Origin: a virus
Direction: 5' to 3' (one strand)
Length of the DNA stretch: 64,000 nt
IMG/VR virus record: IMGVR_UViG_3300023174_000058
Location: 62,001-126,000 of that record
In this document: positions 12,612 to 64,000 of the stretch, piece after piece
Layout of the letters: each line of letters begins with the position of its first letter
Numbering within the stretch: the first letter of the stretch is position 1
Notes under the pieces: model-generated
Databases searched by the model: none
What the model was told of the DNA's origin: nothing
Seen by the model: the letters and a program-made list of their open reading frames with translations, nothing else
Made by a program: the position numbers and the translations under genes

Positions 12612-12613
12612 AA

Positions 12614-14831: not shown

Positions 14832-14832
14832 A

Positions 14833-15366
14833 ATGATTGAACCTATTTTAATAAAAACAAAAAAATTTTTTGATAATCGTGGAATTTTTTATGAAAGTTA
14901 TAAAAAAAGCCATCTAAAAGATGAATATGGCTTGGAAGTTGATTTCCTGCAAGACAATTATTCTATTTCTCATAAAAATGTAATAAGAGGCTTGCACTAT
15001 CAATGGGACAAACCAATGTCCAAACTTATAAAAGTTTCTTATGGTAAAATATTAGATGTAATTGTAGATATAAGAAAAAAATCTAATAATTTTGGCAAAG
15101 TTTATTATTATGAGCTAGATGAAGAAAACAATGATCAGCTCTTCGTACCAGAAGGGTTTGCTCATGGCTTTATTTGTTTAAGTGAAATAGCGCACGTTCA
15201 ATATAAATGCTCCTCCGAATATAATAAAAATGGTGAATCTGGTATTAATCCATTCGATAAAAATTTAAATATTGATTGGAAAATTGATACTATAAAGGCG
15301 ATTATATCTGATAAAGACAAAAATTCTAAATCATTAGAACAATATTTATTAGATCCAAAATTCTGA
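14833..15366 (+). CDS. rfbC: dTDP-4-dehydrorhamnose 3,5-epimerase (RmlC-like)
   Basis: 177 residues, the usual length. The cupin core has FFDNRGIFYE, VIRGLHYQ (the catalytic His lies in this stretch), LDVIVDIRKKS and LFVPEGFAHGF, all hallmarks of RmlC. The enzyme epimerises dTDP-4-keto-6-deoxyglucose at C3 and C5 on the way to dTDP-L-rhamnose; related 3- or 5-epimerases serve other sugars. It is followed by RmlB- and RmlD-type genes. Confidence 0.9.
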   Translation: MIEPILIKTKKFFDNRGIFYESYKKSHLKDEYGLEVDFLQDNYSISHKNVIRGLHYQWDKPMSKLIKVSYGKILDVIVDIRKKSNNFGKVYYYELDEENNDQLFVPEGFAHGFICLSEIAHVQYKCSSEYNKNGESGINPFDKNLNIDWKIDTIKAIISDKDKNSKSLEQYLLDPKF

Positions 15367-15373
15367 GGAAAAA

Positions 15374-16273: not shown

Positions 16274-16293
16274 TATTTTTAAATTTAATAAAA

Positions 16294-16977
16294 ATGAAAA
16301 TTTTACTAACTGGCGGATCTGGAACTTTAGGTAAAGAATTGATTAAGTTATTGATTAAATCTGAACATACGGTTGAATATCCTTCTTCGTCTGAATTAGA
16401 TATCTCCGATTATAACTCTTGCTTAAGAGCAATTGATAAATACCAACCAGAATTAGTTATTAATTCAGCAGCTTATACTGATGTCAAAGCAAGCGAAAAT
16501 AATCTTAGCAAAATAATTAAAATTAACGTTATTGGAACTTGTAATATTGTTTTGGCTTGTGAAATAAAAAACATAAGACTAGTTCATATCTCCACAGACC
16601 ATGTATTTGATGGCGAAAAAGGCAATTATAAAGTAGATGATCCAATAAATCCAATTACTAAATACGCCAAAAGTAAAGGTTCAGCCGAGTTGTGCGCTCG
16701 TATGTACAATAATGCTTTAATAATAAGAACTTCTTTTTTTACTCACTCATTTCCTTATGAAAAAGCGTTTGTTGATCAGTGGTCTTCTAAAGATTACGTT
16801 GATATTATAGCACCTAAAGTATTAGAAGCGGCTTTGTCTAATAAATTAGGAATCGTGCATTGTGTTAGTAAACGTAGAACTTTATTAGATATAGCAAGAG
16901 ATCGAAAACCAGAGGTTCAAGCAATTAGCAGAAACGATATAAACTTTCCTACTCCAAAGGACACAAGTTTAATATGA
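16294..16977 (+). CDS. rfbD: dTDP-4-dehydrorhamnose reductase-like SDR (RmlD-like), short
   Basis: 227 residues; RmlD is usually about 290. TGGSGTLGKEL binds the cofactor, NSAAYTDV and HISTDHVFDG are RmlD-type, and YAKSKGSAE contains the YxxxK catalytic pair. The middle of the substrate domain and the C-terminal helices look shortened, and the protein ends soon after FPTPKDTSL. It may be a compact reductase of dTDP-4-keto-rhamnose or of GDP-4-keto-6-deoxymannose from Gmd. No strong Shine-Dalgarno is seen. Confidence 0.8.
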   Translation: MKILLTGGSGTLGKELIKLLIKSEHTVEYPSSSELDISDYNSCLRAIDKYQPELVINSAAYTDVKASENNLSKIIKINVIGTCNIVLACEIKNIRLVHISTDHVFDGEKGNYKVDDPINPITKYAKSKGSAELCARMYNNALIIRTSFFTHSFPYEKAFVDQWSSKDYVDIIAPKVLEAALSNKLGIVHCVSKRRTLLDIARDRKPEVQAISRNDINFPTPKDTSLI

Positions 16978-17750
16978 AATATTATCTTACTATTTTTACT
17001 ATGTTTAAGAACGAAAAAAGGTATCTTAAAGAGTGGATTGATTTTCATTTACTTGTTGGTTTTGAACATATCTACTTGTGCGATGATTGCAGCACCGATA
17101 GTCCGTTTGAGATTCTAAAGCCTTATATAGATAGAAAATTAATAACATATTTTACTTGGAAAGATGAGCCAAAACCATCATTTTCATCAAGAAATTATTT
17201 TGTAGATACATTTAAAAACGAAACTTATTGGACTGCTTTTATAGACATTGATGAATTCTTATTTTGTTCTAACAAAGAAGATAAATTATCAGAAAAATTA
17301 AAAGAATATGAAGAATTTTCTGGATTGGGTATTAACAGTTACAGTTTTGGCAACAGTGGATTAAAAAAGTATGACGAAAGAATGGTTATTGAAAAATTCA
17401 TACATAGAAGCCCAGATGACCACCCAGAGAATACATATATAAAAACAATAAGTAAGCCGATTACTATGGCTGAGTCTAACAATCCTCATTATGCAAACTA
17501 TATTAGTGGATATGCTGTTAATGAAAACAAAGAAAAAATTAATGGATCAAATTGTTTAAACAAAAATAAAATTTTTAGAATTAATCATTATTCAAATAAA
17601 TCAGAGGAAGAATATTATAACTTTAAATTTAAACCAAATGAAGGTAGACTTCCTGTTGCAAAAAAAAATTATGATAAGTACAACAGCGAATGTATAGTTG
17701 AAGATAGATTAATACAAAGATATTTAAAGGATCTAAGTAATGCTAATTAA
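16974..17750 (+). CDS. Glycosyltransferase, GT92/Glyco_tranf_2_4-like
   Basis: 258 residues, starting in an ATGA overlap. FTMFKNEKRYLKEWIDFH and HIYLCDDCSTD near the N-terminus, then FIDIDEFLF, are the signature of GT92/DUF23-like and Glyco_tranf_2_4 families, with DID as the metal-binding DxD. C-terminal KIFRINHYSNKSEEEYY is also typical. The sugar transferred is unknown. Confidence 0.83.
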   Translation: MKYYLTIFTMFKNEKRYLKEWIDFHLLVGFEHIYLCDDCSTDSPFEILKPYIDRKLITYFTWKDEPKPSFSSRNYFVDTFKNETYWTAFIDIDEFLFCSNKEDKLSEKLKEYEEFSGLGINSYSFGNSGLKKYDERMVIEKFIHRSPDDHPENTYIKTISKPITMAESNNPHYANYISGYAVNENKEKINGSNCLNKNKIFRINHYSNKSEEEYYNFKFKPNEGRLPVAKKNYDKYNSECIVEDRLIQRYLKDLSNAN

Positions 17751-18768
17751 TTATGTAAAAAATAAAAAACCAAATTATGAAAATATACAAAAAATATTAT
17801 CTATTTCACAAGAAAAAAATCATTTTACAAATAATGGACCAGCAAAAATAAAGCTAGAAAAATTTTTGCATTCATTCCTTAAAATTGATACAAATAAAAA
17901 AATTTTATGTGTAGCTAATGGAACATTAGCTTTGCATGCTATAAATTTTTATTTTAAAATTAAATATGGAAAATTTAAGTGGCTAACTCCTGCATATACT
18001 TTTCCTTCAAGCGTTATAGGAGGGATGGAAACAAAAATTTTAGATATTAACTTGAATGATTATTCTTTCGCAAAAGAGGAAGTAGAAAAAGAAAAAGATT
18101 ATGATGGTTTAATAATAACAAACTTGTTCGGAACATACCCAGATATTGATTATTGGGAATCGTTTTGCAAAGAAAATAATAAAATTTTAATTTTAGATAA
18201 TGCAAGTTCTCCACTTAGTTCATATAAAGGAAAAAATATTTCAAATTATGGTAATTTTTCTTTTGGTAGTTTGCATCATACAAAAGTAATAGGATTCGGG
18301 GAAGGCGGATTCATTGTATGTCCAGAAGAAGATTATGAATTACTCAGTTCTATTGTTACATTTGGCTTTAAAGGTAATAGAATTTATAATGAAAATTCAT
18401 CAAATTATAAAATGTCCGATGTACAAGCTGCTTTCATTTTAGATCATTTAATGAATTTTAATTTAGAAAAATATGTAAAAACACAAAAAATTTTTTTAAA
18501 TGAATTAAACATTGATGGTGCCGAAATTTTTAACAAAAAAGAAGGCGTTGTATATGGAAATTTACCAATTATTTTTAAAAAACCAACAGACAATCTTTTA
18601 TTTAAAGATTTAGGCATAGATGCTTATAAGTATTATTTACCATTAAAGCAATTAAAAAATTCTGTTTATTTATATGAAAGAATGGTAAATTTTCCACTAA
18701 ATGAAAATCTAGAAGAAGAAGAGATTGAATTAATAATTAACAACATCAAAAGGCAAGCAAAAAAATGA
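17740..18768 (+). CDS. DegT/DnrJ/EryC1/StrS-type sugar aminotransferase
   Basis: 342 residues of a PLP-dependent fold-type I enzyme. VANGTLALHA at 58-67 binds phosphate, Asp153 in ILILDNASS contacts the pyridine nitrogen, and Lys182 in HHTKVIGFGEGGF is the PLP lysine. The family transaminates nucleotide-linked keto-sugars, commonly the product of RmlB. With RmlB and an acyltransferase in the same operon, formation of an N-acylated dideoxy amino sugar is likely. Confidence 0.88.
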   Translation: MLINYVKNKKPNYENIQKILSISQEKNHFTNNGPAKIKLEKFLHSFLKIDTNKKILCVANGTLALHAINFYFKIKYGKFKWLTPAYTFPSSVIGGMETKILDINLNDYSFAKEEVEKEKDYDGLIITNLFGTYPDIDYWESFCKENNKILILDNASSPLSSYKGKNISNYGNFSFGSLHHTKVIGFGEGGFIVCPEEDYELLSSIVTFGFKGNRIYNENSSNYKMSDVQAAFILDHLMNFNLEKYVKTQKIFLNELNIDGAEIFNKKEGVVYGNLPIIFKKPTDNLLFKDLGIDAYKYYLPLKQLKNSVYLYERMVNFPLNENLEEEEIELIINNIKRQAKK

Positions 18769-19430
18769 AACTAGCAATTATGCAACCCTATATATTTCCA
18801 TATATAGGGTATTTTCATTTGATAGATAGTGTAGATACGTTTATATTTTACGATGATGTAAATTTTATAAATTCTGGATGGGTCAATAGAAATAAAATAT
18901 TAGTAAACAATAAAGAATTTTTATTTACTATTCCAACAGACTGGTCGCAAAATAAAAAAATAAACGAGGTATTTGTTACGGGAGAATACGCAAAGTGGAA
19001 GAAGAAATTTTTTAGTACTGTTAAACATTCCTATGGAAAAGAAAAATATTATAAGGATGGCGTAACTATTATAGAACAGACCTTTGAACAATCCCAGAGT
19101 CTAAATCAAATATGTAAATCTTCAATTAAAAACGTTTTAGATTATCTAGAAATTGAAAAAAATATTATTGATTCTTCTGCCATATTTAATAATGAAAATT
19201 TAAAATCTGAAATTAGAATAAAAGATATATGTAAAAAAAACAAAACTAGCACGTATATCAATACATCTGGTGGTAAGGCTTTGTATTCTAAAGAAGATTT
19301 TGCTAATGATTATATAGAACTTTATTTTGTAAAGAGCAAAGAAAATTTAAATTTTTTGTCAATAATAGATACAATAATGAAGTACGGAAAAGAAACAAAA
19401 AAATTTATAAAAGAATACGAGTTAGAATGA
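18765..19430 (+). CDS. WbqC-like family protein
   Basis: 221 residues starting in an ATGA overlap. The N-terminus MQPYIFPYIGYFHLI, FIFYDDVNFINSGW and NRNKIL are the WbqC family signature. WbqC-like genes occur in O-antigen and amino-sugar loci, and a role in N-acylation of amino sugars has been considered, but the biochemistry is poorly defined. Its place after the aminotransferase agrees with that. Confidence 0.85.
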   Translation: MKLAIMQPYIFPYIGYFHLIDSVDTFIFYDDVNFINSGWVNRNKILVNNKEFLFTIPTDWSQNKKINEVFVTGEYAKWKKKFFSTVKHSYGKEKYYKDGVTIIEQTFEQSQSLNQICKSSIKNVLDYLEIEKNIIDSSAIFNNENLKSEIRIKDICKKNKTSTYINTSGGKALYSKEDFANDYIELYFVKSKENLNFLSIIDTIMKYGKETKKFIKEYELE

Positions 19431-20050
19431 TGCATTCACCAGAATCCCTAAAAGATCATTATGAAGAATGCTTTATAAAGCACGGGGACAATTATCTTGG
19501 CGCAGATTGGACTAAAGAAAAGGATCTTTATACAAGATATGATGTTATGCTTTCCATAATAGATAAAAGCATTAGCGAAAAAAAAGTTTTAGATTTTGGT
19601 TGTGGAACAGGAATGCTATACAATTATATTTTATCTAAGGACATAAATTATATAAATTATAGCGGAATTGACATAAATGATATATTAATAGAAAAAGCTA
19701 AAACAAAGTTTAAAAATATAAATTTTAAAACATCAGATATCTTTAAAAACCCAGAGTCGCTAGAGCAATACGATTATATTATCTGTAATGGTGTATTTAC
19801 CGAAAAGATAAATTTAACACATGAACAAATGTTCAATTTTTTTTCAAGTGTTTTAAACGTTCTCTTTAAAAAAACTAATATTGGTATTTCTTTTAATTTA
19901 ATGTCAAAACACGTTGATTACGAAAGAGAAGATCTATTTCATGTGAGCCATGATGAATTGGCAAGTTTTTTAACTAAAAATTTATCAAGAAATTATATTA
20001 TAAGAAATGATTATGGCTTATATGAATATACTACATATTTGTATAAATAA
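19427..20050 (+). CDS. SAM-dependent methyltransferase (class I)
   Basis: 207 residues with motif I VLDFGCGTGMLYNY at about 44-57, motif II acidic residue in YSGIDIND, and motif IV-like YDYIICNGVF. It is a Rossmann-fold methyltransferase without an added domain. In this setting a sugar O-methylation or modification of an acyl group is possible; DNA or protein targets are not excluded. Confidence 0.83.
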   Translation: MMHSPESLKDHYEECFIKHGDNYLGADWTKEKDLYTRYDVMLSIIDKSISEKKVLDFGCGTGMLYNYILSKDINYINYSGIDINDILIEKAKTKFKNINFKTSDIFKNPESLEQYDYIICNGVFTEKINLTHEQMFNFFSSVLNVLFKKTNIGISFNLMSKHVDYEREDLFHVSHDELASFLTKNLSRNYIIRNDYGLYEYTTYLYK

Positions 20051-20059
20051 TGGATAAAA

Positions 20060-20713
20060 ATGAATAAATTAATTATATTTGGCGATAAAGATTTAGCTGA
20101 GTTGGCTAATTTTTATATAAATAATGAAAAAAAATACGAAATAGAGTGCTTTACGGTACACAAAAGCTTTCTTACAAAAGAAACCTTCTGCGATAAACCG
20201 GTGATACCTTTTGAAGATATAGAAAAAAAATATTCTCCAAATGAGTATAAAATATTTGCACCAATGACAGGTGTAAGGATGAATGGCATTAGAACAAATA
20301 TTTATCAAGAAGCAAAGAATAAAGGGTATAAATTTATTTCTTATATAAGCCCGAAATGTACTAATTTTGCTTCTAAAATTGGAGAAAATTGTTTTATTTT
20401 AGAAGATAATACTCTACAACCATTTGTAGAAATAGGTAACAATGTTGTAATGTGGAGCGGTAATCATATAGGGCATCATAGCGTGATAAGAGACAATGCA
20501 TTCTTTACATCTCATGTTGTATTGTCCGGTCACTGCGACGTTGGAGAAAACTCTTGGTTTGGAGTCAACGCTACTATTAGAGATCAGATAAAAATAGGAA
20601 AATATTCTTTAATAGCTATGGGCAGTTTAGTGACAAAAAACACAGATGAAAATGGTTTCTACATGGGAAGCCCAGCTAAAAAACAAGAAAAAAAATCTAC
20701 AGAGGTTTATTGA
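20060..20713 (+). CDS. NeuD-like sugar O/N-acyltransferase
   Basis: 217 residues. An N-terminal PglD/NeuD-type Rossmann module (LIIFGDKDLAELANFY) precedes a left-handed beta-helix of hexapeptide repeats (about 110-200, e.g. IGENCFILEDN, IGHHSVIRDNAFF, VGENSWFGVNATI). His at NHIGHH may be the general base. These enzymes acetylate UDP- or dTDP-amino sugars (PglD, VioB) or sialic acid (NeuD). The pairing with a DegT aminotransferase favours an N-acyl amino sugar. Confidence 0.86.
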   Translation: MNKLIIFGDKDLAELANFYINNEKKYEIECFTVHKSFLTKETFCDKPVIPFEDIEKKYSPNEYKIFAPMTGVRMNGIRTNIYQEAKNKGYKFISYISPKCTNFASKIGENCFILEDNTLQPFVEIGNNVVMWSGNHIGHHSVIRDNAFFTSHVVLSGHCDVGENSWFGVNATIRDQIKIGKYSLIAMGSLVTKNTDENGFYMGSPAKKQEKKSTEVY

Positions 20714-21612
20714 TGTGGGAAAAGAAGGGCAATATTTTTAGTAAACATTGGGCACAATTACCAGTTGTAGATACCTCTTATGAAAATTTTTGGAGAATAT
20801 TTTATTCTCAAAGAATAGAAAACAAAAGTTATCCTATGTTTGTTGATATAAAAAAAGATAATCCAGTAGAAATTATAAATGAAAGTCAATTACCTATAGT
20901 AACTTTAGGAGAATTAGGAACTTTTGATCAAGCAGGTGTAATGCCTACGGAAATAGTAAGTTTTAATGATAAAAAATATCTTTATTATATTGGTTGGAGC
21001 AATAGAAAAGATGTTCCATATTTTAATACGATAGGGCTGGCAATAAGTGAAGATAACGGTAACACTTTTAAAAAATTTTCTACTGGGCCTGTTTTTGGGT
21101 GCTCTTATAAAGAGCCGGGATATACTGGCACTATAAAAATTTTAATAGAAAAAAATATATGGAAAGCGTGGTATTTATCATGCCGAAAATGGCAAGAAAT
21201 AAATGGTATTGTAGAACCTTTTTATGATATAAAATATGCAGAATCTACAAATGGAATAGATTGGGAACCTCATAATAAAACTTGTATTCATATGGATGAA
21301 GATTTTGCTGGGGTTTCACAAGCGTCTGTTTTAAAAATTGATAATAAATATCATATGTGGTTCTCAGCAAGAAAAAAAACTGATTATAGAACCAATCCTA
21401 ATAATAGCTACAGAATTTATAAAGCTATATCTCAGAACGGAATCGATTGGGAATATGATAAAACTCCTTCTCTGGATGTTTCTGAAACAGGTTGGGATTC
21501 TACTATGGTAGAGTATCCTTATGTAATTTTTGATAAACAAAGTTATTATATGTTTTATAATGGAAATGGGTTTGGCAAAGAAGGAATAGGATACGCAAAA
21601 ATAAAAAAATAA
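20713..21612 (+). CDS. Beta-propeller glycosidase-like protein (GH43/GH130-type fold)
   Basis: 299 residues from ATG 20713, in a TGATG overlap with the acyltransferase. Repeated blade-like units contain YLYYIGWSN, LAISEDNGNTF, KYAESTNGIDWEP, YHMWFSARK and YYMFYNGNGFG, as seen in five-bladed glycoside hydrolase propellers. Proteins of this type occur inside polysaccharide loci of bacteria and may act on sugars or as lectins. Catalytic acids are not certain, so hydrolase activity is unproven. Confidence 0.68.
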   Translation: MWEKKGNIFSKHWAQLPVVDTSYENFWRIFYSQRIENKSYPMFVDIKKDNPVEIINESQLPIVTLGELGTFDQAGVMPTEIVSFNDKKYLYYIGWSNRKDVPYFNTIGLAISEDNGNTFKKFSTGPVFGCSYKEPGYTGTIKILIEKNIWKAWYLSCRKWQEINGIVEPFYDIKYAESTNGIDWEPHNKTCIHMDEDFAGVSQASVLKIDNKYHMWFSARKKTDYRTNPNNSYRIYKAISQNGIDWEYDKTPSLDVSETGWDSTMVEYPYVIFDKQSYYMFYNGNGFGKEGIGYAKIKK

Positions 21613-21634
21613 TAATTTTTCTAAGCACAATAAA

Positions 21635-22381
21635 ATGAAAAAACAATTAAAAGAAGATGGTTATATATTATTAAAAAATTTTTTAGATTTATCTACTCTG
21701 AACGATCTTAAAAAAGAAGCGGAATTATTTTTTTTAAAACAATTTCAAAATCATATTTCAAAAAATATAAAAAAATTTGAAGAAAAATATATGTTTGAGT
21801 TGTTTGAAAAAAATTTTGAAACTTTTCAAAACTGCGGCAAACATATACAACATGGATCTATAAAACTACATTCTCTTGGAATTAATAATAAAATTTTAGA
21901 TATTTTAAAAGAATGTGGGCTAGAATATCCTGCAATAGCTACAAGACCAGTTCTTTTTTTTAATCACCAAAGATTAGCAAAAGATCAAGTATATTATAAA
22001 ACTCCACCTCACCAAGACTGGAACAGTATTAGAGGTTCTAATGATTGTATGATAGTTTGGATACCTTTAGTAGATGTAGATACAACTATGGGAGCATTAC
22101 GAATAGTACCAAAATCTCATACAAGTGGAAGTTTAATGTCTAATGTCGTTGGAGGTTTTGGAGCTGTTTCAAAATATTCTAAAGCAGACTTTATTAATGT
22201 TCCAATGAATAAAGGTGATATATTGATATTTTCTTCTTTTTTGGTGCACGAATCAGGGGAAATGAATACTGATAAAATACGTTGGTCTTGTAATTTTAGG
22301 TATAACAATATTAACGACGAAGATTTCATTAAAAGAAATTATGAATTTTCATATATTTATAAACCAAAAATTAAGGAATAA
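21635..22381 (+). CDS. Phytanoyl-CoA dioxygenase (PhyH)-family Fe(II)/2OG oxygenase
   Basis: 248 residues. The N-terminal KEDGYILLKNFL and the metal triad HxD at His126-Asp128 (PPHQDW) with distal His205 (FLVHESG) are the PhyH pattern; GALRIVPKSH is also typical. It should hydroxylate a small molecule using iron, oxygen and 2-oxoglutarate. In this operon an acyl group or sugar is a plausible substrate. Composition is very AT-rich. Confidence 0.85.
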   Translation: MKKQLKEDGYILLKNFLDLSTLNDLKKEAELFFLKQFQNHISKNIKKFEEKYMFELFEKNFETFQNCGKHIQHGSIKLHSLGINNKILDILKECGLEYPAIATRPVLFFNHQRLAKDQVYYKTPPHQDWNSIRGSNDCMIVWIPLVDVDTTMGALRIVPKSHTSGSLMSNVVGGFGAVSKYSKADFINVPMNKGDILIFSSFLVHESGEMNTDKIRWSCNFRYNNINDEDFIKRNYEFSYIYKPKIKE

Positions 22382-22383
22382 AA

Positions 22384-23109
22384 ATGAAAAAATTTGGGAT
22401 TGTTATTTGTACATATTATAGAAAAGATGGGTCTTCCTTTTTAAAAGTTTCAAGAGCAATAAAATCAATAGAAAATCAAACAAATAAAGAATGGAAAATT
22501 TTTCTTATTGGTGATCACTATGAAAATGAAGAAGAATTTAAAAAAATAACACAATTATTACCAGAAGAAAAAATTACAGCAATAAATTTGCCATTTGCGG
22601 CGGAAAGAGAATCTGGTTTATTTTCTGGTAATAGCTTGTGGTGTTCTGCTGGAGCTAATGCCTCTAATGCCGGAATTGAGCAAAGCGTAAAAGAAGAGTA
22701 TGATATTCATTGTCATCTGGACGATGATGACATTTGGCTACCAAATCATTTAGAGACTCTACAATTAGCTTACGATAATATGCCCGAGGCTGTATTTGTT
22801 TATACAAACGCTTTATACACCGATCGTGGCGGACACACTACAAGATACCCGGTTGAACAAGTTAGCAATGAAATATTTTATAATAATTTAATGCCAAGAC
22901 CAGAAAAGCTTATTCATTCAAGTGCATCTTGGAAGCTAAAAGTGTTCCCTTTTAGACACAGAAATACTATGGAGCAAGGAAGAATATTCCCCGGAGACGC
23001 AGATATGTGGGAGCGAATAAACTTGTTTTGTAGACAAAATAACCTAAAAACAATCTATGTACCAATTACAACAGTTGTAAAATTTGACGAAGCGAGCATT
23101 CTTAAATGA
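22384..23109 (+). CDS. Glycosyltransferase, GT2-like (GT-A fold)
   Basis: 241 residues. FGIVICTYYRK opens the GT-A fold and HCHLDDDDIWLPNHLE contains the metal-binding acidic motif of GT2 enzymes. A later FPGDADMWERI supplies the ED-like region. Codon and base usage return toward that of the phage core compared with the AT-rich genes just before. Donor and acceptor unknown. Confidence 0.86.
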   Translation: MKKFGIVICTYYRKDGSSFLKVSRAIKSIENQTNKEWKIFLIGDHYENEEEFKKITQLLPEEKITAINLPFAAERESGLFSGNSLWCSAGANASNAGIEQSVKEEYDIHCHLDDDDIWLPNHLETLQLAYDNMPEAVFVYTNALYTDRGGHTTRYPVEQVSNEIFYNNLMPRPEKLIHSSASWKLKVFPFRHRNTMEQGRIFPGDADMWERINLFCRQNNLKTIYVPITTVVKFDEASILK

Positions 23110-23519
23110 AAACGGCATTATTAGCTGGCAATTTTGATATAATTCATCCCGGCTATATTCACACATTTCGTAAAGCAAAAGAATATTGTGATTATTTTGT
23201 AGTTGCTCTACAAACAGATCCAACTATTGAACGTCCAAAAAAAATTAAACCAATACTTTCTTGGGAAGAACGTCAAAACATATTATTATCAATAAAATAC
23301 ATTGATGAAGTTATAAAATATACAACAGAAAATGACTTAATAAATATATTAAAAACTAATCGCTATGATGTTAGAATACTTGGAGATGATTATGTTGGAA
23401 AGTATGCAACTGGTCAAGAATATAGTGATGAAATAGTTTACATAGATCGAGAACACGGTTGGTCAACAACCAAATATAAACATCTTATTTGCAAAAGTTT
23501 ACACGGAGAAAATAAATGA
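23106..23519 (+). CDS. Cytidylyltransferase-family nucleotidyltransferase
   Basis: 137 residues in an ATGA overlap. LLAGNFDIIHPGYIHTF corresponds to the (F/W)D-x-xHxGH nucleotide-binding motif, here HPGY, and HGWSTTKYK to the ISTT signature of TagD-like enzymes. Members join CTP or ATP to glycerol-phosphate, heptose-phosphate or ethanolamine-phosphate. The final His of HxGH is Tyr, so activity should be checked. It closes the glycan island. Confidence 0.82.
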   Translation: MKTALLAGNFDIIHPGYIHTFRKAKEYCDYFVVALQTDPTIERPKKIKPILSWEERQNILLSIKYIDEVIKYTTENDLINILKTNRYDVRILGDDYVGKYATGQEYSDEIVYIDREHGWSTTKYKHLICKSLHGENK

Positions 23520-55881: not shown

Positions 55882-57876
55882 ATGGCTAATCCATTAAAAA
55901 TTTTAACACAGTTATCAGCAAGTGAAGCTGCTGAATTTATGAAAGAAGTTAAATTCAATGAAAAAATTACACTAGCTAACAAGAAAATCGTTGGCCTAGC
56001 AGAAGGTACAGTAAACGGTGATGCAGTTCGTTATGAACAATTATCATCAGAGGCTTCATTACGCGTCTCAGGCGATTCATCACTAGCTTCACGCCTATCT
56101 GTTGAAGAATCAAACCGTGAAGTAGCAGTTAGCTTAGAAACATCAAACCGTATTTCTGCTGATAATTCGCTCTCATCACGTATTTCATTAGAAGAATCAA
56201 ATCGCGCTTCAGCTGATAGCTCAGTAAGTACTTCATTAACAAACCGTATTTCATCTGAAGAATCAACTCGTGCATCAGGCGATGTTTCACTAACAAATCG
56301 CGTTTCATTAGAAGAATCAACAAGAATATCCTTAGATGTTTCATTAACAAATCGTGTTTCATTAGAAGAGTCAACTCGTGCAGCTGCAGTTAGCGTTGAA
56401 CAATCAGTCCGTGCATCAGCAGATATTTCATTAACTACTCGTTTATCAACAGAAGAAAGCAATTCACTTTCAGTTGATATAAGCCTCTCTAATCGTATAT
56501 CAACCGAAGAATCAACACGTGCTTCAGCTGATGGTTCAATCGCAGTTGCTTTTGCTGCAGCTGATACGTCATTAACAACACGTCTTGGTAACGAAGAATC
56601 AACTCGTGCATCAGGCGATCTTTCCTTAACAAACCGTATTTCAACCGAAGAATCAGCTCGCGCAGCTGCAATTATTGCAGCAAATTCTTCTATTGATACT
56701 CGCGTTTCAAACGAAGAATCAGCCCGTGCGGAAGGAGATGTTTCATTAACAAATCGTATATCAACCGAAGAATCAACACGCGCTTCAGCTGATGGTTCAT
56801 TAACAAATCGTGTTTCATTAGAAGAATCAACAAGAATATCCTTAGATGTTTCATTAACAAATCGTGTTTCATTAGAAGAGTCAACTCGTGCCTCATCTGA
56901 TGTCTCATTAGCAACACGTCTTGGAAATGAAGAAACAGCAAGAGGAAGTGCTGATACCTCGTTAACAACCCGCGTTTCATTAGAAGAATCAGTTCGCGCT
57001 TCAGCTGACGCAAGCATCGTAGTAGCACTATCAACCGAAGCACAAGCACGTATTGCGGAAGATCTACTCTTCCTCAAGCTTGATGGTTCACGCGCAATGA
57101 CCGGCGATCTTAATATGGGTACAAAGAGCATTACAAATGCTAAGAGCGGTTCATTCTCGGGTGATGTTACAATTGCTGGTCAATTAAAGGTTCAAGGTTC
57201 ATTAACTTACCTAGATACACAAAATCTAAAAGTTAAAGATAACCTAATTGAACTTAACGTTCCAGAAACTGGCGCAACAAGCAATGCAAATGCTGGTATC
57301 GTAATCAAGGGTAGCACCGCAAACAAAGACGTAAGCATGATCGTTGATACAGACGGCGGCAACCTTGTTGTTAACACCAAAGTCTCAGCTTCAGCGTTTG
57401 ATGCAGCTGGTGCTGTTGATGTTGGCGGTGCATTAACAGTAGATGGACAAGCAACAATTAGCTCAGATCTATTTATCTCAGGTGCTTCATACGGCGCAGC
57501 GGATACAATGATTGGTTACTCTGGCGGAGTATACAACGTTGAGAGCATGCTACGCGTATTGTTCAACAGAGGCAACACAAGCGTTGATGGTTATTCAAAA
57601 CTACGCCACGTTGCAGAACCAAGCCTTGTTGGTGGTACACTCACCTACGCTCTACCAGAAACAGCAATGTTTGCTGATAGCCAACTTGGTAAGGTTATGG
57701 TTGACGTTCTAGTAGCTTCAGGCGGCGGTTGGAGCAACGATCTAATCGCAGTCAAACTAGAAGATAAGGGCAACGGCTATCTACAAATTGTTATCGACGC
57801 TCCAGCCCACAACAACGGTAAAGTACGTATTATCGCTGTTAACGAAGGCATGGACCTAGAGACAGCTGGTCAATAA
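55882..57876 (+). CDS. Tail fibre protein with 18-residue repeats
   Basis: 664 residues. About residues 55-385 are repeats near 18 residues long, of the form SLTNRISxEESTRASxDx, compatible with a long trimeric helical or alternating shaft. The segment after 390 (GDLNMGTKSITNAKSGSFSG, then GSLTYLDTQNLKVKDN) is a common phage fibre motif, and the C-terminal 90 residues form a compact strand-rich tip. Likely a long fibre that contacts the host. Strong AGGAGG site, and a perfect terminator follows. Confidence 0.85.
   Translation: MANPLKILTQLSASEAAEFMKEVKFNEKITLANKKIVGLAEGTVNGDAVRYEQLSSEASLRVSGDSSLASRLSVEESNREVAVSLETSNRISADNSLSSRISLEESNRASADSSVSTSLTNRISSEESTRASGDVSLTNRVSLEESTRISLDVSLTNRVSLEESTRAAAVSVEQSVRASADISLTTRLSTEESNSLSVDISLSNRISTEESTRASADGSIAVAFAAADTSLTTRLGNEESTRASGDLSLTNRISTEESARAAAIIAANSSIDTRVSNEESARAEGDVSLTNRISTEESTRASADGSLTNRVSLEESTRISLDVSLTNRVSLEESTRASSDVSLATRLGNEETARGSADTSLTTRVSLEESVRASADASIVVALSTEAQARIAEDLLFLKLDGSRAMTGDLNMGTKSITNAKSGSFSGDVTIAGQLKVQGSLTYLDTQNLKVKDNLIELNVPETGATSNANAGIVIKGSTANKDVSMIVDTDGGNLVVNTKVSASAFDAAGAVDVGGALTVDGQATISSDLFISGASYGAADTMIGYSGGVYNVESMLRVLFNRGNTSVDGYSKLRHVAEPSLVGGTLTYALPETAMFADSQLGKVMVDVLVASGGGWSNDLIAVKLEDKGNGYLQIVIDAPAHNNGKVRIIAVNEGMDLETAGQ
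56291..56381 (+). repeat. 91-bp near-identical repeat, copy 1
   Basis: This stretch of the fibre gene matches 56801-56891 with one mismatch (base 56301 against 56811). Each copy is itself made of diverged 54-bp units. Confidence 0.85.
56801..56891 (+). repeat. 91-bp near-identical repeat, copy 2
   Basis: Second copy, 510 bp after the first. The near identity implies recent duplication or gene conversion within the fibre shaft. Recombination between the copies would delete 170 residues in frame. Confidence 0.85.
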
Positions 57877-57901
57877 TTAAAACTAAAATAATTTAGTTTG
57901 G

Positions 57902-57930
57902 GGAGCGGAGAGAAATCTCCGCTCCTTTTT
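57902..57930 (+). terminator. Perfect GAAA-loop terminator after the fibre gene
   Basis: GGAGCGGAGA (57902-57911) and TCTCCGCTCC (57916-57925) form a 10-bp perfect stem with a GAAA tetraloop, followed by TTTTT. Confidence 0.95.
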
Positions 57931-57949
57931 ATTTATCTTGTAAAACATA

Positions 57950-57960
57950 CTATTTATTTT
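57950..57960 (+). promoter_or_regulatory. Putative late promoter motif
   Basis: CTATTTATTTT, 28 bases before the ATG at 57978, between the fibre terminator and AAAGGAG. It is identical to the sequence in the terminator loop at 4439-4449. Member of the CTAWWTATW set. Confidence 0.55.
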
Positions 57961-57977: not shown

Positions 57978-59108
57978 ATGAAAAAAATAAATATTGGTAT
58001 CTCTGTTTTAATTAACAAACCAACAGAATCTTTCTTTACAAATGGTATAAGACAAAATGCGATCATAATGAAAGACCTTTATGAGAAAATAGATTTTGTT
58101 AATAAAGCTTATTATATAAATTTTGGAAAACAAAAAGATTATTCACAATCACCTTGGAAACAATATGAACGAAACATTATACAATTTGAAGAAATGTTTG
58201 ATAAAATAGATGTTTTAGTCGTTTCTTGCGTAACGATTTCAAAAGAAATTGCTGATGCGGCAAAGAAAAAAGGCATTAAGCTTATACATCACATAATGGG
58301 AAATGAATATTACTCATACGTTGAAAGCGTTTTATTTAAAAAAGAAGAAAGCACTATACTAGCAAAAGAAGATTGGTATGACTCAGTATGGATTTCTCCA
58401 CACTTATATGAAATAAATAAAGATTTATTTGAAGCAATTTATGAATGTGATGCAAATGTTGGTGCATATGTGTGGTCACCACAATTTTTATTGGAACATG
58501 TGAATGCTTTATACGATACAAAAAAAATTAAAGAAAAAATCTATATTCCAAGCGATAAAAAACAAAAAAGAATTAATGTTTTTGAGCCAAATTTAAGTTT
58601 TATGAAAAATTCTATATTTCCGATTTTAATAGGTGAAAAACTAGAACTAAAACACCCAGAAATTTTTGATAGTTTAAATTTGTTTGGATCAGACACAATA
58701 AAAGAAAAAAAACAATTAATAGATCTTGTAAAAACTTTAAAAATACAAAAAAATAAAAAAATCTTTTTTGAAGACAGATATCCTATTGCTTGGTCACTTT
58801 TTAATCATACGGACATTGTTTTATCTCATACGCATTATTGCGACTTAAATTATGTTTATTTTGATGCTGCTTGGCTTGGTTTTCCATTAGTACACAATTC
58901 AAAGTTTATAAAAAAGCTCGGCTGGTATTATGAAAATTTTGATGCAGATGGAGCGATTAAGCAAATTAATAAAATAGCTAACACGTTTGACAAATTGCAG
59001 GTTAGAGAAAAATATCTAAAAGATTCGCAAAAGTTTATTTCTGATTATTTTCCAACACACGTCAAGAACGTTGAAGCATATAAAAAATTATTAGAAAAAC
59101 TATTTTAA
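57978..59108 (+). CDS. DUF2827-type glycosyltransferase-like protein, copy A
   Basis: 376 residues. The opening KINIGISVLINKPTESFFTN with GIRQNAIIM, and later YVYFDAAWLGFPLVHNS, match the DUF2827 family, which looks like a GT-B glycosyltransferase. The next gene is a clear paralogue. It lies between two fibre genes and is expressed from its own putative late promoter, so its substrate may be a virion protein. Strong AAAGGAG site. Confidence 0.8.
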   Translation: MKKINIGISVLINKPTESFFTNGIRQNAIIMKDLYEKIDFVNKAYYINFGKQKDYSQSPWKQYERNIIQFEEMFDKIDVLVVSCVTISKEIADAAKKKGIKLIHHIMGNEYYSYVESVLFKKEESTILAKEDWYDSVWISPHLYEINKDLFEAIYECDANVGAYVWSPQFLLEHVNALYDTKKIKEKIYIPSDKKQKRINVFEPNLSFMKNSIFPILIGEKLELKHPEIFDSLNLFGSDTIKEKKQLIDLVKTLKIQKNKKIFFEDRYPIAWSLFNHTDIVLSHTHYCDLNYVYFDAAWLGFPLVHNSKFIKKLGWYYENFDADGAIKQINKIANTFDKLQVREKYLKDSQKFISDYFPTHVKNVEAYKKLLEKLF

Positions 59109-59117
59109 AGGTTGATT

Positions 59118-60254
59118 ATGAAAAAAATAAATATTGGTATAACTTTATCTATAGATCCAACTGAATCTTTGTTTACTAATGGTATACGACAAAACATTCT
59201 TATTCTTAGAGAATTATATGAAAAATGCGAAGGTGTAGAAAAATCTTACATTATTAATACATCTGGAAAAAGCATCCCAGACGATCCAAAATTGCCACTT
59301 TATCCTTTTAGAGATGTCATAATAGATATCAAAGATGTAGTTAAATATTGTAATTTTGTTGTTGTTGCCCACGGTTCTTTGTTGCCAGCAGAGTATCAAG
59401 AATTGTCAAAAGCAGGAATAAAAATAACTAAACTTATTCTCGGACCATCAGTTAGTATTTTTAACGAAGGAATACTTTTTAAAGGCAATGATCAGCAACA
59501 AGGTAATTTTTATAGAAATAAAGGTAATGTTAGTAAAGTTTGGATGTCAAAACATTACTTTAAAGATAGATATTTTTTTGAAACAATCTATGGATGTGAA
59601 GCAAAAATTGCACCATATGTTTGGGATCCACGATTTATAGAAAAAAGCTGTTCAGATTTCCAAAATAACAATAAAAAAATAGCAGAATATATTCCAAGCG
59701 GTTTAAAAGAAAAAAGAATTGTTAATTTTGAGCCAAATTTAAATATGGTTAAGACTTCTACGCAATCTGTTGTAACTTTAGAAAGATTTTATCGGCAACA
59801 CCCAGAATATGTAGGAGATTGCTATTTTTTTAATACAGGCGTTATTAAGCAAAAAAAGGATTTTATTGATTTTGTAAAAGATTTAGATATTTACGTTTCA
59901 AAAAAACTTTCTTTTGAGGGCGGGATTGCGATAGTAAATGCTTTAGGTAATTATGGAGATGTAGTTTTAGCTAGTCAAAATCAAAATGAGCTAAATTATC
60001 TTTATTTAGATGCTGCTTGGATGGGATATCCAGTTCTACACAATTCAAGCATGATGAAAGAAATAGGATTTTATTATAAAGATAATGATGCTCAACAAGC
60101 TTCAAAAATATTATATAATATATGCAAAAATTTTGATAAAAATTACAAAAAATATAAACAAGAATCAAGAGAAAAATGTAAAAAGTATATGATTACAAAC
60201 GAACAACATATAAAAAATTATACAAAACTTATACATGAAGTAATGGATTCTTAA
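59118..60254 (+). CDS. DUF2827-type glycosyltransferase-like protein, copy B
   Basis: 378 residues from ATG 59118. It shares with copy A the start (KKINIGITLSID, then ESLFTNGIRQN), the central RIVNFEPNLNMVKTS (copy A RINVFEPNLSFMKNS) and the donor-site-like YLYLDAAWMGYPVLHNS. A tandem duplication with substantial divergence suggests that the two copies differ in donor or acceptor. Confidence 0.8.
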   Translation: MKKINIGITLSIDPTESLFTNGIRQNILILRELYEKCEGVEKSYIINTSGKSIPDDPKLPLYPFRDVIIDIKDVVKYCNFVVVAHGSLLPAEYQELSKAGIKITKLILGPSVSIFNEGILFKGNDQQQGNFYRNKGNVSKVWMSKHYFKDRYFFETIYGCEAKIAPYVWDPRFIEKSCSDFQNNNKKIAEYIPSGLKEKRIVNFEPNLNMVKTSTQSVVTLERFYRQHPEYVGDCYFFNTGVIKQKKDFIDFVKDLDIYVSKKLSFEGGIAIVNALGNYGDVVLASQNQNELNYLYLDAAWMGYPVLHNSSMMKEIGFYYKDNDAQQASKILYNICKNFDKNYKKYKQESREKCKKYMITNEQHIKNYTKLIHEVMDS

Positions 60255-60255
60255 A

Positions 60256-60465
60256 ATGAAGAAAAAAATTACATATTTAGTAAAATATATGGATGATGTT
60301 ATCAAAGAAGTATTAACGCATACAAAAGATATAAAAACTCAAGCAGAATTATTAAAAAATAGGCAAATGTTAGATGAAGCAATAAAAAAATTAGAAAAAA
60401 AATATGACAATATTATAAAAGACATACAAAACGATATAGAGGAAGAGCAAACGGATGAAAAATAG
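60256..60465 (+). CDS. Small coiled-coil protein
   Basis: 69 residues, one base after the previous stop. Lys/Glu-rich helix throughout (LLKNRQMLDEAIKKLEKKY), ending in an acidic tail. It could be a fibre-assembly helper by position, but nothing in the sequence proves this. Confidence 0.6.
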   Translation: MKKKITYLVKYMDDVIKEVLTHTKDIKTQAELLKNRQMLDEAIKKLEKKYDNIIKDIQNDIEEEQTDEK

Positions 60466-60706
60466 TTTTAATTTTTTACAATTTACTAATTGGTTATTAA
60501 TTTGTAGAGAAAATATTGGAAAAATAAAACAAGAAATTTTAGACGAAAAAATTACAAAGCAACAAGCAATTGAAAAATTATTAGCGGAAAAAAAAAGAAT
60601 ATCAATCTTAAAAGATGTTTTAGATAAAAAAGTCCGACTATTTGGTATTCAATCGCATTTTTTAAAGAATTTAAATGAGTTAAAAAAAAGATATGGAGTT
60701 GAATAG
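60455..60706 (+). CDS. Small helical protein
   Basis: 83 residues, overlapping the previous gene by 11 bp. Predicted helical, Lys-rich (ITKQQAIEKLLAEKKRI). Together with its neighbour it resembles a pair of small helical chaperone-like proteins lying before a fibre gene; inference only. Confidence 0.6.
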   Translation: MKNSFNFLQFTNWLLICRENIGKIKQEILDEKITKQQAIEKLLAEKKRISILKDVLDKKVRLFGIQSHFLKNLNELKKRYGVE

Positions 60707-60710
60707 CAAA

Positions 60711-60739: not shown

Positions 60740-62848
60740 ATGTCCACTGGCAATAGAAAACCGGTAAAAGTTTTGACCGATCTGCTTACAAAAAAGCAGA
60801 TCCTAAAAGAAGATTCTGACGGTAATATTCTTTTTAAAGTTTCTGGATCTCAAAATAATGGTATAATTAGTGCTTCTTTGCCAATAACAGGTACTGATGC
60901 TTATTTTAATAATGATGTAACGATCGATGGAGTTTTACGAGCAAGTCAAATAGAAGTTACAACATTAATTAATTCGTTAAATTATGAAACTTCCATATCC
61001 GCTTCTATTAATGCGCTTTTAGACGTTTCAGCCTCTACGGCAGAAGTGGATCAATTTTTAAAATGGGATGGCTCACAATGGGTTCCCGGTAATGTTAATA
61101 ATGGCTCAATAGGAGCAGCTGAGGATGGCGATTATACTGACGGTTTATTTACTGACTTTAATGATACCACGCCAGTTGGGACAGCTATTGATAGAATAAA
61201 TGAGGTTTTAAAAGGTCTAGCCCCCAAAGTTGCTCCCGATCTCACAAATTTAGAAAAAACATCCGGCGCAACTGGAACTAATATGCGTTTAGCTTTTGGT
61301 TCTTCATATTCGGTTGCAGGTTATACGAATGTCACTGCTTCAATTGGTGCAATATTATTAAATAAAGATTTTACGGAATCATTTACAACTATTAATGGAA
61401 ACGGCGGATATCCTATAAGACTAGGCGCGTATGCTACGCCTGTTGTCTTAACAATGTCGCTAAATAATAGTGTAGTATCAGACGCAGGAGCTTTTACAAA
61501 TTATCCGGCTAAGTCTTTTAATGTTTCGCAAAATGGTATCGGAAATTATATTTTAGAAGTTAATGGCGTACAAATAAATCCAACTGGTTCTACAAATAAT
61601 ACAAGTTTAGCAAATACAGAAACTTTTGCATTATCATTGGCTAATACTGCTTCTTTTATAGGATCCGGTCAAGGATTTGATTTATTTAGGCATAGAACTG
61701 GAACTGTAGGAATTCCTACGTCCCTATGGCAAAATGGTCATAACTATGTAAAAGTCATTCATAGCTCTTCTCTTGGAACACACGTTACCAACTATATAGA
61801 TTGGGTTTATGATCCTTCGGCAGCATCTGGAGTTGATTCTTATAGTTTTACCACGCCAATTTCAGCTTCTTTTACGGCAACTGGAACAAAACATCTATCT
61901 GGTATAAAATATTACACAAATATATCTTATAACTTTGCTACAACTGTTAGCAATTTCTTTAAAAATATATACCCAATTGCTGGTGGTTTAACTTTCAGTG
62001 GTTTAACATCAGGTTTAACTGTTAACAGCGTTACGATCCCAACTCCTACAACAAATCTTGATGATATCAATGTGAGTGTTGGACATACATTTAATGGTGC
62101 ATATAGGTTATTAGGTAGTTCGCTTGTGTCAACATTAAATTCTGCGAATGGTCTTGGAAAAGCTGGCTCTACTACATTAACAACCAATACTATTCTTTAT
62201 GACAACGTAAATACGGCAAATACGACAACAGCGGAAAATTTCTGCTTAGAAAATTATCGCGGTGAATCAGGTAGCTATGATACGCAAACAGCAGCTTTAA
62301 ATGCAATTGGGGCTTTCCCAAGCGGTTCTTCTTTAGGATCTAACGAATTGGCTGTTTATAATGATTCATTAAGATATCCAACCCAAATCTTAAACGGTGG
62401 TAACGTTAGTGGATCCGGTATTGTCCATATGATTTCAGGGCAGCCAAACTATTCTTCAGCATCCGGTAATAGAACATATCATCGTATCTTCCGCAATGGC
62501 TCAAGCTCTATAGCTGTATTTAATTTAGCAATTAATGGCGGAAGCGGTATTAATGTTGTACCTTTTGGCACAGCTTTAAACTCAAACAACGTTCATGTAT
62601 GGATCAAAATACCCGGAAAAACAGGCTGGCGTGATATAGCTACTGGTACCCCCGCCCCCGGCTATAGTGCCTTGGATAATAATTTAGGTGCTTTACAGGG
62701 TTCAAAAGTAACAACATCTACTTCTTCAACTCATACTATCAATTTATTAACCGAGGCGCTTGCTGTAAATGAATATTTTGTTTTAAGAATTGAAGCATCG
62801 GACGCTTGGACTAATAACATTGGTTCAATAACAATAACAGGATTGTAA
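60740..62848 (+). CDS. Tail fibre / virion surface protein (702 aa)
   Basis: 702 residues. The N-terminal part (GNILFKVSGSQNNGI, DAYFNNDVTIDGVLRASQIE, FLKWDGSQWVPG) is a usual phage fibre layout of strand-rich attachment modules. The rest is Ser/Thr/Asn-rich beta structure, with a C-terminal domain (VHVWIKIPGKTGWRD, LRIEASDAWTNNIGS) likely to form the distal tip. It is a candidate substrate for the glycosyltransferase-like genes before it. Confidence 0.78.
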   Translation: MSTGNRKPVKVLTDLLTKKQILKEDSDGNILFKVSGSQNNGIISASLPITGTDAYFNNDVTIDGVLRASQIEVTTLINSLNYETSISASINALLDVSASTAEVDQFLKWDGSQWVPGNVNNGSIGAAEDGDYTDGLFTDFNDTTPVGTAIDRINEVLKGLAPKVAPDLTNLEKTSGATGTNMRLAFGSSYSVAGYTNVTASIGAILLNKDFTESFTTINGNGGYPIRLGAYATPVVLTMSLNNSVVSDAGAFTNYPAKSFNVSQNGIGNYILEVNGVQINPTGSTNNTSLANTETFALSLANTASFIGSGQGFDLFRHRTGTVGIPTSLWQNGHNYVKVIHSSSLGTHVTNYIDWVYDPSAASGVDSYSFTTPISASFTATGTKHLSGIKYYTNISYNFATTVSNFFKNIYPIAGGLTFSGLTSGLTVNSVTIPTPTTNLDDINVSVGHTFNGAYRLLGSSLVSTLNSANGLGKAGSTTLTTNTILYDNVNTANTTTAENFCLENYRGESGSYDTQTAALNAIGAFPSGSSLGSNELAVYNDSLRYPTQILNGGNVSGSGIVHMISGQPNYSSASGNRTYHRIFRNGSSSIAVFNLAINGGSGINVVPFGTALNSNNVHVWIKIPGKTGWRDIATGTPAPGYSALDNNLGALQGSKVTTSTSSTHTINLLTEALAVNEYFVLRIEASDAWTNNIGSITITGL

Positions 62849-62850
62849 TC

Positions 62851-64000
62851 AATGGCTTTAACAGAAAAAAATCAGTTATTAATAGCATTTAAAAAACTTT
62901 ACGGTAAAAGTCACACAAGCGCTAAATTTGGCGTTTTCAATGAAAGTATTGGTTCATCCGTTCAATTAGGCGCTAGTACAATATTTGGTAGCGTAATACC
63001 AAGCAGCCCAAGTGGTTCGCTGTATAGTATTACGCAAAATATTGTAGAAAAAATTAAATTTGATCTCGTACCTATTTCGCTATCAACTTACGCCAGTACA
63101 TTAGGCTCTTTAGCTGGTACTACAATAGATGATGAAGGCGATACAGCGGTAAATGGTGTACATGCCTATCGTTTAGTTTTACCTTCTGATTATGTAATTA
63201 ACTCTTCCAATCCAAAGAAGGGCACTGGGTATTTTATAAATTCTGCTACAGCATCAGTATCTAATGGTGCCTTGCAGTTGGTTCCACCATCTTTTGGTGA
63301 CTTGTATACAGCAGAAATTAGTAGTTCTTCTGGTATTATTGGCGGTCTTGATGACGAAGATTATTATCTAGACTATTATTCCGGTATTTTATTTATACAA
63401 GATATTGGTAGAACTCCAACTGCCGTTACTGCTTATGCATATGTTGGCGACTTTGTTAGTGATATTATTTCGGATGTAGCAACTGATGTAATAACAGAAG
63501 TTATTGCTGGAACAAATTTAACTGGTGGCGGCACAAGCGGTTCTGTAACTGTAAGCTTAGAGGATAATATTTCTCTAACATCTGTAACGGCATCTTTATA
63601 CGGTACTGCTTCTTGGGCTACTACATCAAGTTATGCATTAAATGCTGCTACTGCAAGTTATGTTACTGCTTCTAATATTGATAATTTTACTTCTGATGTT
63701 AGAAGTCAATTTAGTGCTGGCACAAATATAAGCATAACTAGTGGCACTATATCAACAATTAATGTTCCCACTGTAACACAAGTAAGTGGAGCTATTTCAA
63801 ATTTTGCAACAAGAGCAGAAGTTACTGGTGCGCTTTCTCCATACGCTCTTTCAATAGATGTATCATCTTCGTTCACAACACCAGCACAAGTAACGGGAGC
63901 TTTTTCTGTTGTAACTGCAAAAAATGCAGAAACTGCAAGTTATGCATTAAATACAACATTTTCTACTACTAATATACAAAATGCTTATAACCGATTAAGA
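62851..64000 (+). CDS. Tail fibre-like protein, 3'-truncated by window edge
   Basis: ATG at 62851, two bases after the previous stop, opens a frame without stop to the window end (383 codons seen). Residues about 245-270 include SLYGTASWATTSSYALN and ATASYVTASN, the Ala/Thr/Ser repeats seen in phage fibre shafts, and the unit recurs near the end (ETASYALNTT). The first 200 residues form a folded N-terminal domain (DYYLDYYSGILFIQD). Likely another fibre. Confidence 0.75.

What the first reader, a model, noticed from the sequence alone, without database searches (positions are those of the whole stretch)
57978..60254. Tandem DUF2827 glycosyltransferase-like genes embedded in the fibre cluster
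Two diverged paralogues sit between fibre genes behind their own putative late promoter, apart from the glycan island. Late timing and position suggest they glycosylate fibre proteins, using sugars made by the island: a two-part virion glycosylation system. The functional link is inference.
Basis: partly seen in the sequence, partly recalled or inferred. Interest (0 to 1): 0.72.

Follow-up and report, generated by a model that had tools for sequence, protein, structure and literature searches.

The report
Paired sugar-adding enzymes beside phage fibres
Two neighbouring phage genes of an uncharacterised protein family are predicted to have the fold of sugar-transferring enzymes, and this family sits beside long three-stranded attachment fibres both in phages and in Burkholderia bacteria, which suggests that it decorates such fibres with sugar; this is a prediction that a simple mass measurement could test.

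Summary
ORF1 (57978-59108) and ORF2 (59118-60254) are full-length DUF2827 proteins (PF10933, E 5e-78 and 2e-71), 36% identical, between fibre genes. A strong terminator and a genome-enriched promoter-like motif (ACTATTTAT) precede them.

Both are predicted GT-B folds. ORF2's model (pLDDT 91, pTM 0.88) matches BshA, MshA and PimB'; O-GlcNAc transferases, including GtfA, are also among the listed matches.

New evidence for the fibre link: DUF2827 directly follows or flanks a fibre in three separate phage lineages. In Burkholderia, arrays of 2-4 copies lie 0.2-2.8 kb downstream of a YadA-type trimeric autotransporter in 8 of 10 records.

The pair is not a recent duplication. In all three phages that carry it, one copy has lost R267, and in two of them also H284. 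Both residues are otherwise near-invariant (56/58). Both copies are under equally strong purifying selection. This resembles the GtfA/GtfB pair that glycosylates Ser-rich adhesins.

The 'two-part' link to the sugar island is not supported: DUF2827 phages generally lack such islands, and the nearest relative's island has turned over.

Best reading: a dedicated fibre-stalk glycosyltransferase pair using a common host nucleotide sugar. Activity and target are inferred.

The parts
55882..57876 (+). Fibre gene directly upstream: 664 aa, Ser/Thr-rich 18-residue repeats (coiled-coil-like stalk). Most likely glycosylation target.
   Evidence: Translation; 18-residue periodicity, 32% Ser+Thr in the repeats; clusters with fibres upstream of DUF2827 in L010, L030, L033, L034, L036; weak tail-fibre PHROG hit, E 0.048
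57900..57927 (+). Intrinsic-terminator-like hairpin (12 pairs, 7 G-C, T tail) that separates the fibre from the DUF2827 unit
   Evidence: 15 terminator-like sites in the region against 6.1 +/- 2.2 in shuffles
57949..57957 (+). Promoter-like motif ACTATTTAT, 20 nt before the ORF1 start
   Evidence: most start-proximal 9-mer in the record; 9/13 plus-strand copies within 40 bp of a start, 0 on the minus strand
57978..59108 (+). ORF1, DUF2827, 376 aa; canonical copy (keeps R267 and H284)
   Evidence: E 4.7e-78; GT-B model pLDDT 80, pTM 0.80 with PDB matches; residues; dN/dS 0.086
59118..60254 (+). ORF2, DUF2827, 378 aa; non-canonical copy (R267G, H284S in ORF1 numbering)
   Evidence: E 2.4e-71; GT-B model pLDDT 90.9, pTM 0.88 with PDB matches; dN/dS 0.085
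60256..60465 (+). Small ORF (69 aa), no family; probably in the same transcription unit
   Evidence: 83% identical in L010; no credible family
60455..60706 (+). Small ORF (83 aa), no family; overlaps the previous one
   Evidence: 78% identical in L010
60710..60718 (+). Second copy of the promoter-like motif, before the next fibre gene; marks the end of the four-gene unit
60740..62848 (+). Fibre-like gene (702 aa) downstream; second candidate target
   Evidence: the related phage L011 has a shorter homologue directly after its DUF2827 pair
62852..64000 (+). Fibre-like gene, runs off the window; candidate target
10400..23519 (+). Glycan island (context, probably not required by DUF2827): Gmd-like and dTDP-glucose dehydratase-like enzymes, RmlC, RmlD, aminotransferase, WbqC, methyltransferase, acetyltransferase and several glycosyltransferases
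   Evidence: turnover in the sister phage

Best explanation
ORF1 and ORF2 are two diverged GT-B enzymes of the DUF2827 family, made from their own transcription unit inside the fibre cluster, that together attach sugar to Ser/Thr residues of the neighbouring trimeric fibre (first candidate: the repeat stalk of 55882). ORF1 is the likely catalytic subunit. ORF2 keeps the fold and the invariant E203-P204-N205...K210 and N291...H306-N307 residues but has lost R267 and H284, so it is more likely a partner that binds or orients the fibre, or an enzyme with another donor. The donor is probably a common host nucleotide sugar rather than a product of the phage's own island. Shown: the family, the predicted fold, the gene order, its recurrence beside fibres and trimeric autotransporters, the paired lineages, the residue losses and purifying selection. 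Inferred: catalysis, donor, hetero-complex, fibre as acceptor, timing.
For: GT-B fold: 43 PDB hits with E<1e-3 for ORF1, top BshA+UDP E 5e-8, with all or nearly all listed hits GT-B glycosyltransferases; 239 hits for ORF2, top BshA E 1.1e-11, with O-GlcNAc transferases and GtfA also among the 50 listed. Gene order: DUF2827 next to a fibre in window, L010 and L011; in L030 and L033 (a collagen-like fibre cluster); and in L034 and L036. These are three separate branches of the tree. Bacteria: arrays of 2-4 downstream of a YadA anchor in 8/10 Burkholderia/Caballeronia records, same strand, 0.2-2.8 kb; the adjacent passengers reach 45-49% Ser+Thr. A GT2 gene adjoins DUF2827 in L003, L007, L028, L034 and L036, as expected for glycan extension. 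Pairing: ORF1 and ORF2 belong to different supported clades; 56/58 members keep R267 and H284, but ORF2 and its orthologue lost both, and L011's partner copy lost the R. dN/dS is 0.086 and 0.085.
Against: No activity, glycan or complex has been shown. Many DUF2827 phages have no fibre beside it: the largest group follows a GH24 endolysin, with a LamG/Ig-like surface protein nearby in only some. The fibre, not only the enzyme, could drive co-location. The Caballeronia pair has no autotransporter on its replicon. The EX7E signature of GT4 enzymes is absent. A GT-fold neighbour of a trimeric autotransporter can lack activity: B. thailandensis BimC (PMC6439308). High Ser/Thr is not unique to autotransporters beside DUF2827 (difference not significant).
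Confidence: 0.6

Rival explanations
1. The two enzymes act with the glycan island: the island makes a special deoxysugar or oligosaccharide and the DUF2827 pair transfers it to fibres.
For: Island and pair occur together in G000 and in its closest relative G001.
Against: 13 of 14 other DUF2827 virus records have no NDP-sugar epimerase and none has RmlC (several are fragments). The island's content has turned over between the two sisters while DUF2827 stayed 78% identical. The island carries its own glycosyltransferases.
Confidence: 0.12
2. The enzymes modify the host cell surface (O-antigen or capsule) during infection, for superinfection exclusion, and merely sit in the fibre cluster.
For: Phage-encoded glycosyltransferases commonly do this (general knowledge). 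The endolysin-linked copies sit in a lysis region.
Against: The family lies beside trimeric autotransporters in bacteria and beside fibres in three phage lineages. The models show no extra membrane helices beyond the GT-B core. Position is within a structural-gene cluster.
Confidence: 0.13
3. DUF2827 proteins are GT-fold chaperones or assembly factors for trimeric coiled-coil fibres, without sugar transfer.
For: BimC precedent: GT-fold protein beside a trimeric autotransporter, interacts with it, no transferase activity found (PMC6439308). EX7E absent; ORF2 lost R267 and H284.
Against: E203, N205, K210, N291, H306 and N307 are invariant in all 58 members, as expected for a ligand or active site. 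A GT2 gene adjoins DUF2827 in five loci.
Confidence: 0.1
4. The enzymes glycosylate modified DNA bases, as T4 alpha- and beta-glucosyltransferases do.
For: T4 DNA glucosyltransferases are also GT-B (general knowledge), and this phage has T4-type portal and terminase homologues.
Against: No thymidylate-synthase/hydroxymethylase family gene in the 162-kb record, which may be incomplete. The family's bacterial copies sit beside adhesins. T4 glucosyltransferases are not among the listed structural matches.
Confidence: 0.03

Closest known systems
Streptococcal/staphylococcal GtfA-GtfB complex (O-GlcNAc priming of serine-rich repeat adhesins; PMC6973325, PMC5207161)
   Same: Two neighbouring GT-B proteins near a Ser/Thr-rich repeat surface fibre; one catalytic, one a substrate-binding partner; further GTs may extend the glycan. 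GtfA is among ORF2's structural matches.
   Different: No DUF1975 domain (no Pfam hit), about 10% identity, no accessory Sec system; here the fibre is a phage tail fibre, or a YadA-type autotransporter in the bacterial relatives.
Bacterial autotransporter heptosyltransferases (TibC/AAH, BAHT; PMC4358343) and BimC-BimA in Burkholderia (PMC6439308)
   Same: Dedicated GT-fold protein encoded beside the autotransporter that it acts on or binds.
   Different: No sequence match to any known glycosyltransferase family in Pfam. BimC is reported to lack transferase activity.
Virion glycosylation in mycobacteriophages Che8, Corndog and Myrna (cited in PMC12363180 and PMC11256854)
   Same: Phage-encoded glycosyltransferases that modify the phage's own structural proteins.
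   Different: Reported targets are capsid and tail-tube proteins, not fibres; no DUF2827 match in the annotated phage collection.
Pfam PF10933 (DUF2827)
   Same: Both proteins are full-length members.
   Different: Described only as 'unknown function'; the one paper in the held library that names it is a database paper on cysteines in DUFs.

Membership tests
DUF2827 (PF10933) | Full-length profile match over the curated cut-off | tested here: met
   ORF1 263 bits, ORF2 241 bits, cut-off 25, positions 1-362/362
GT-B fold glycosyltransferase | Two Rossmann-like domains as in solved GT-B enzymes | tested here: met
   Predicted models only: ORF1 pTM 0.80, ORF2 pTM 0.88; all or nearly all top PDB matches are GT-B glycosyltransferases, TM-score to BshA 0.59-0.66
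GT-B fold glycosyltransferase | Nucleotide-sugar binding and transfer activity | not testable with these tools
   Conserved polar residues (E203, N205, K210, N291, H306, N307 in 58/58) fit a ligand site but do not prove it
GT4 (Glycos_transf_1, PF00534) | Profile match and EX7E motif | tested here: not met
   No PF00534 hit; only D/E at position 296 is kept and there is no acidic residue 8 positions before it; hhalign against the window's own GT4 proteins finds nothing
GtfA/GtfB | DUF1975 (beta-sheet add-on) domain | tested here: not met
   No such Pfam hit in ORF1 or ORF2
GtfA/GtfB | Obligate pair of one canonical and one non-catalytic GT-B protein | tested here: inconclusive
   Pair of distinct lineages in three phages, one copy lacking R267; many relatives are single genes; physical complex and inactivity not tested
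GtfA/GtfB | Acceptor is a Ser/Thr-rich repeat surface protein encoded alongside | tested here: inconclusive
   Such a gene is alongside (32% Ser+Thr repeats in 55882; up to 49% in Burkholderia passengers); acceptor role not shown
T4-type DNA glucosyltransferases | A dCMP hydroxymethylase in the same genome | tested here: not met
   No PF00303 match in the 162-kb record; the record may be incomplete
Phage virion glycosylation systems (mycobacteriophage type) | Glycan shown on virion proteins and lost when the gene is removed | not testable with these tools
   Needs virions

The most novel reading that the evidence does not exclude
DUF2827 is a glycosyltransferase family specialised for trimeric coiled-coil stalks, shared by phage tail fibres and bacterial YadA-type adhesins. 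In this phage it works as a two-subunit complex (one canonical, one non-canonical GT-B) that O-glycosylates a tail fibre, a phage counterpart of GtfA/GtfB.
Probability: 0.33. Interest if true: 0.8.

Novelty: new variant of a known kind. Interest (0 to 1): 0.6.

Why it matters
If true, an uncharacterised family gains a function and a target class, and tail fibres, which decide host range, join capsids and tail tubes as glycosylated phage parts. A fibre glycan could affect receptor binding, stability or antibody escape and would change how fibre structures are read. The shared neighbourhood also predicts glycosylation of Burkholderia trimeric autotransporters, whose Ser/Thr-rich repeats have already prompted that suggestion for BCAM2418 (PMC7142374), and makes it testable by a gene deletion and one mass spectrum.

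Tried and rejected
No annotated phage relative: megablast of the region and tblastn with ORF1 and with a Burkholderia copy find nothing in the phage collection. No sequence-level match to solved structures with single sequence or profile. hhalign against the window's two GT4 proteins is uninformative. A search of bacterial relatives by kinship was not possible from a virus record, so the bacterial survey rests on the plasmid collection (mainly Burkholderia, related records, not independent), and one record (B. arboris, L048) was not scanned for YadA. Considered and rejected: a recent tandem duplication (the copies fall in different supported clades); ORF2 as a decaying pseudogene (dN/dS 0.085); DNA glucosylation. 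The Ser/Thr excess of autotransporters beside DUF2827 (mean about 0.37, n=9) over others in the same replicons (about 0.26, n=7) is suggestive only (rank test by hand about p 0.06, rows related). The 'YadA-tail' regular expression found one of nine and was replaced by the family search.

Full report
OBSERVATION. The two ORFs are real, complete and correctly named: ORF1 57978-59108 (376 aa) and ORF2 59118-60254 (378 aa; the listed TTG start at 59112 adds two residues) both match Pfam DUF2827 from end to end and each other at 36% identity. They are the only two DUF2827 genes in the 162,187-bp virus record that holds the window. Upstream lies a 664-aa fibre gene with 18-residue Ser/Thr-rich repeats, downstream two small ORFs and further fibre-like genes. 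A strong terminator-like hairpin closes the upstream fibre (57900-57927). It is followed by ACTATTTAT at 57949; another copy stands at 60710 before the next fibre gene. In a scan of the record this 9-mer is the one most concentrated just upstream of ORF starts (9 of 13 plus-strand copies within 40 bp; none on the minus strand). The four genes 57978-60706 therefore look like one transcription unit. Whether it is late is not known.

FOLD. No family library or PDB sequence search names a function. AlphaFold2 gives ORF1 pLDDT 80, pTM 0.80 from eight sequences and ORF2 pLDDT 91, pTM 0.88 from twenty. Foldseek against the PDB returns, in all or nearly all top places, GT-B glycosyltransferases: BshA with UDP first for both (E 5e-8 and 1e-11), then glycogen synthase, MshA, PimB', OtsA/TPS, plant UGTs, and for ORF2 also O-GlcNAc transferases and the streptococcal GtfA and GtfA/B complex. 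The fold is a firm prediction. The GT4 EX7E signature is not there, so this is not a plain GT4 member.

NEIGHBOURS IN PHAGES. A degenerate search of 2.9 million viral contigs gave 26 loci. In three well-separated branches of the tree DUF2827 directly follows, or flanks, a fibre: window, L010 and L011; L030 and L033, inside a collagen-like fibre cluster; and L034 and L036. The largest group instead follows a GH24 endolysin, in several members with a variable LamG/Ig-like surface protein in the same run of genes. In L003, L007, L028, L034 and L036 a GT2 glycosyltransferase gene adjoins DUF2827.

NEIGHBOURS IN BACTERIA. On Burkholderia replicons DUF2827 occurs in arrays of two to four. In 8 of 10 records tested, a YadA anchor domain lies 0.2-2.8 kb upstream on the same strand (annotations). 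The exceptions are an array broken by insertion sequences and a Caballeronia replicon without any YadA anchor. In three megabase-sized replicons that carry only two to four YadA anchors each, one of them sits at the array. The adjacent passengers reach 45-49% Ser+Thr in tandem repeats, but one of seven autotransporters elsewhere does too. The records are related, so this is one strong association rather than eight independent ones.

THE PAIR. ORF1 and ORF2 are not a recent duplication. ORF1 groups with its orthologue near L011's complete copy, and ORF2 falls in the larger phage clade (98/99 support). Among 58 full-length members, R267 and H284 (ORF1 numbering) are kept in 56; the two that lost both are ORF2 and its orthologue. 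The partner copy in L011, where the order is reversed, also has Gly for that Arg. By position both residues follow C-domain strands at the side that faces the inter-domain cleft of a GT-B enzyme (inferred from the secondary structure; coordinates were not inspected). Even so, ORF2 is as constrained as ORF1 (dN/dS 0.085 and 0.086). A conserved, non-canonical second copy suggests a division of labour: a partner, or a second donor specificity.

MECHANISM. The most economical reading is a dedicated glycosyltransferase pair for trimeric coiled-coil stalks: soluble GT-B proteins take a common nucleotide sugar from the host and place it on Ser/Thr of the neighbouring fibre before assembly. The precedent for the arrangement is GtfA (transferase) with GtfB (acceptor-binding chaperone) beside serine-rich repeat adhesins (PMC6973325). 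The precedent for self-modification of phages is capsid and tail-tube glycosylation in mycobacteriophages (PMC12363180). A warning comes from BimC, a GT-fold neighbour of a Burkholderia trimeric autotransporter reported to lack transferase activity (PMC6439308).

THE ISLAND. The window's sugar island is real. However, of 14 other DUF2827 virus records none has RmlC and only one, the sister phage, has an NDP-sugar epimerase. In that sister the island has a different gene set, with matches only 22-48% identical, while ORF1 and ORF2 are 78% identical. Fragmented records weaken the negative, but three exceed 100 kb. The two-part system is therefore not supported.

VERDICT. Observation confirmed; interpretation partly supported: enzyme class and fibre link strengthened, island link weakened, paralogue asymmetry new. 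It is a new variant of a known kind (dedicated adhesin glycosyltransferases; virion glycosylation). Interest 0.6.

Noticed in passing
window 10400-23519 against L061 (G001:1-14000): The glycan island sits at the same place in the closest related phage but has a largely different gene content (22-48% identity where genes match), like a swappable polysaccharide cassette.
   Followed up: partly
whole record G000 (window, L049-L054): ACTATTTAT is strongly concentrated 17-32 bp before plus-strand ORF starts and absent from the minus strand: a likely phage promoter element.
   Followed up: partly
BFVD A0A7L9AXF5 (Pyramimonas orientalis virus 01B): An uncharacterised protein of a giant algal virus is the closest viral structural match to ORF1 (TM 0.74, 20% identity), so the family may extend to eukaryotic viruses.
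   Followed up: no
L036 (JALRHN010000200.1, 3,597 bp): The only hit in bacterial genome assemblies is a short contig binned in a Candidatus Kapaibacterium MAG with fibre repeat, DUF2827 and GT2 in the same order as virus contig L034: probably a phage fragment that hints at the host.
   Followed up: no
L012-L018, L021-L023, L025-L027, L032: A second stable context for DUF2827: directly after a GH24 endolysin and an M15-like peptidase, in several members with a variable LamG/Ig-like protein starting MFFY. What DUF2827 does there is unexplained.
   Followed up: partly
window 56031-57131, minus strand: A 366-aa open frame opposite the fibre repeats mirrors the repeat and is almost certainly not a gene.
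   Followed up: no
L047, 13772-16116: Caballeronia DUF2827 pair among metabolic genes with no YadA anchor on the replicon: an exception to the adhesin link.
   Followed up: partly
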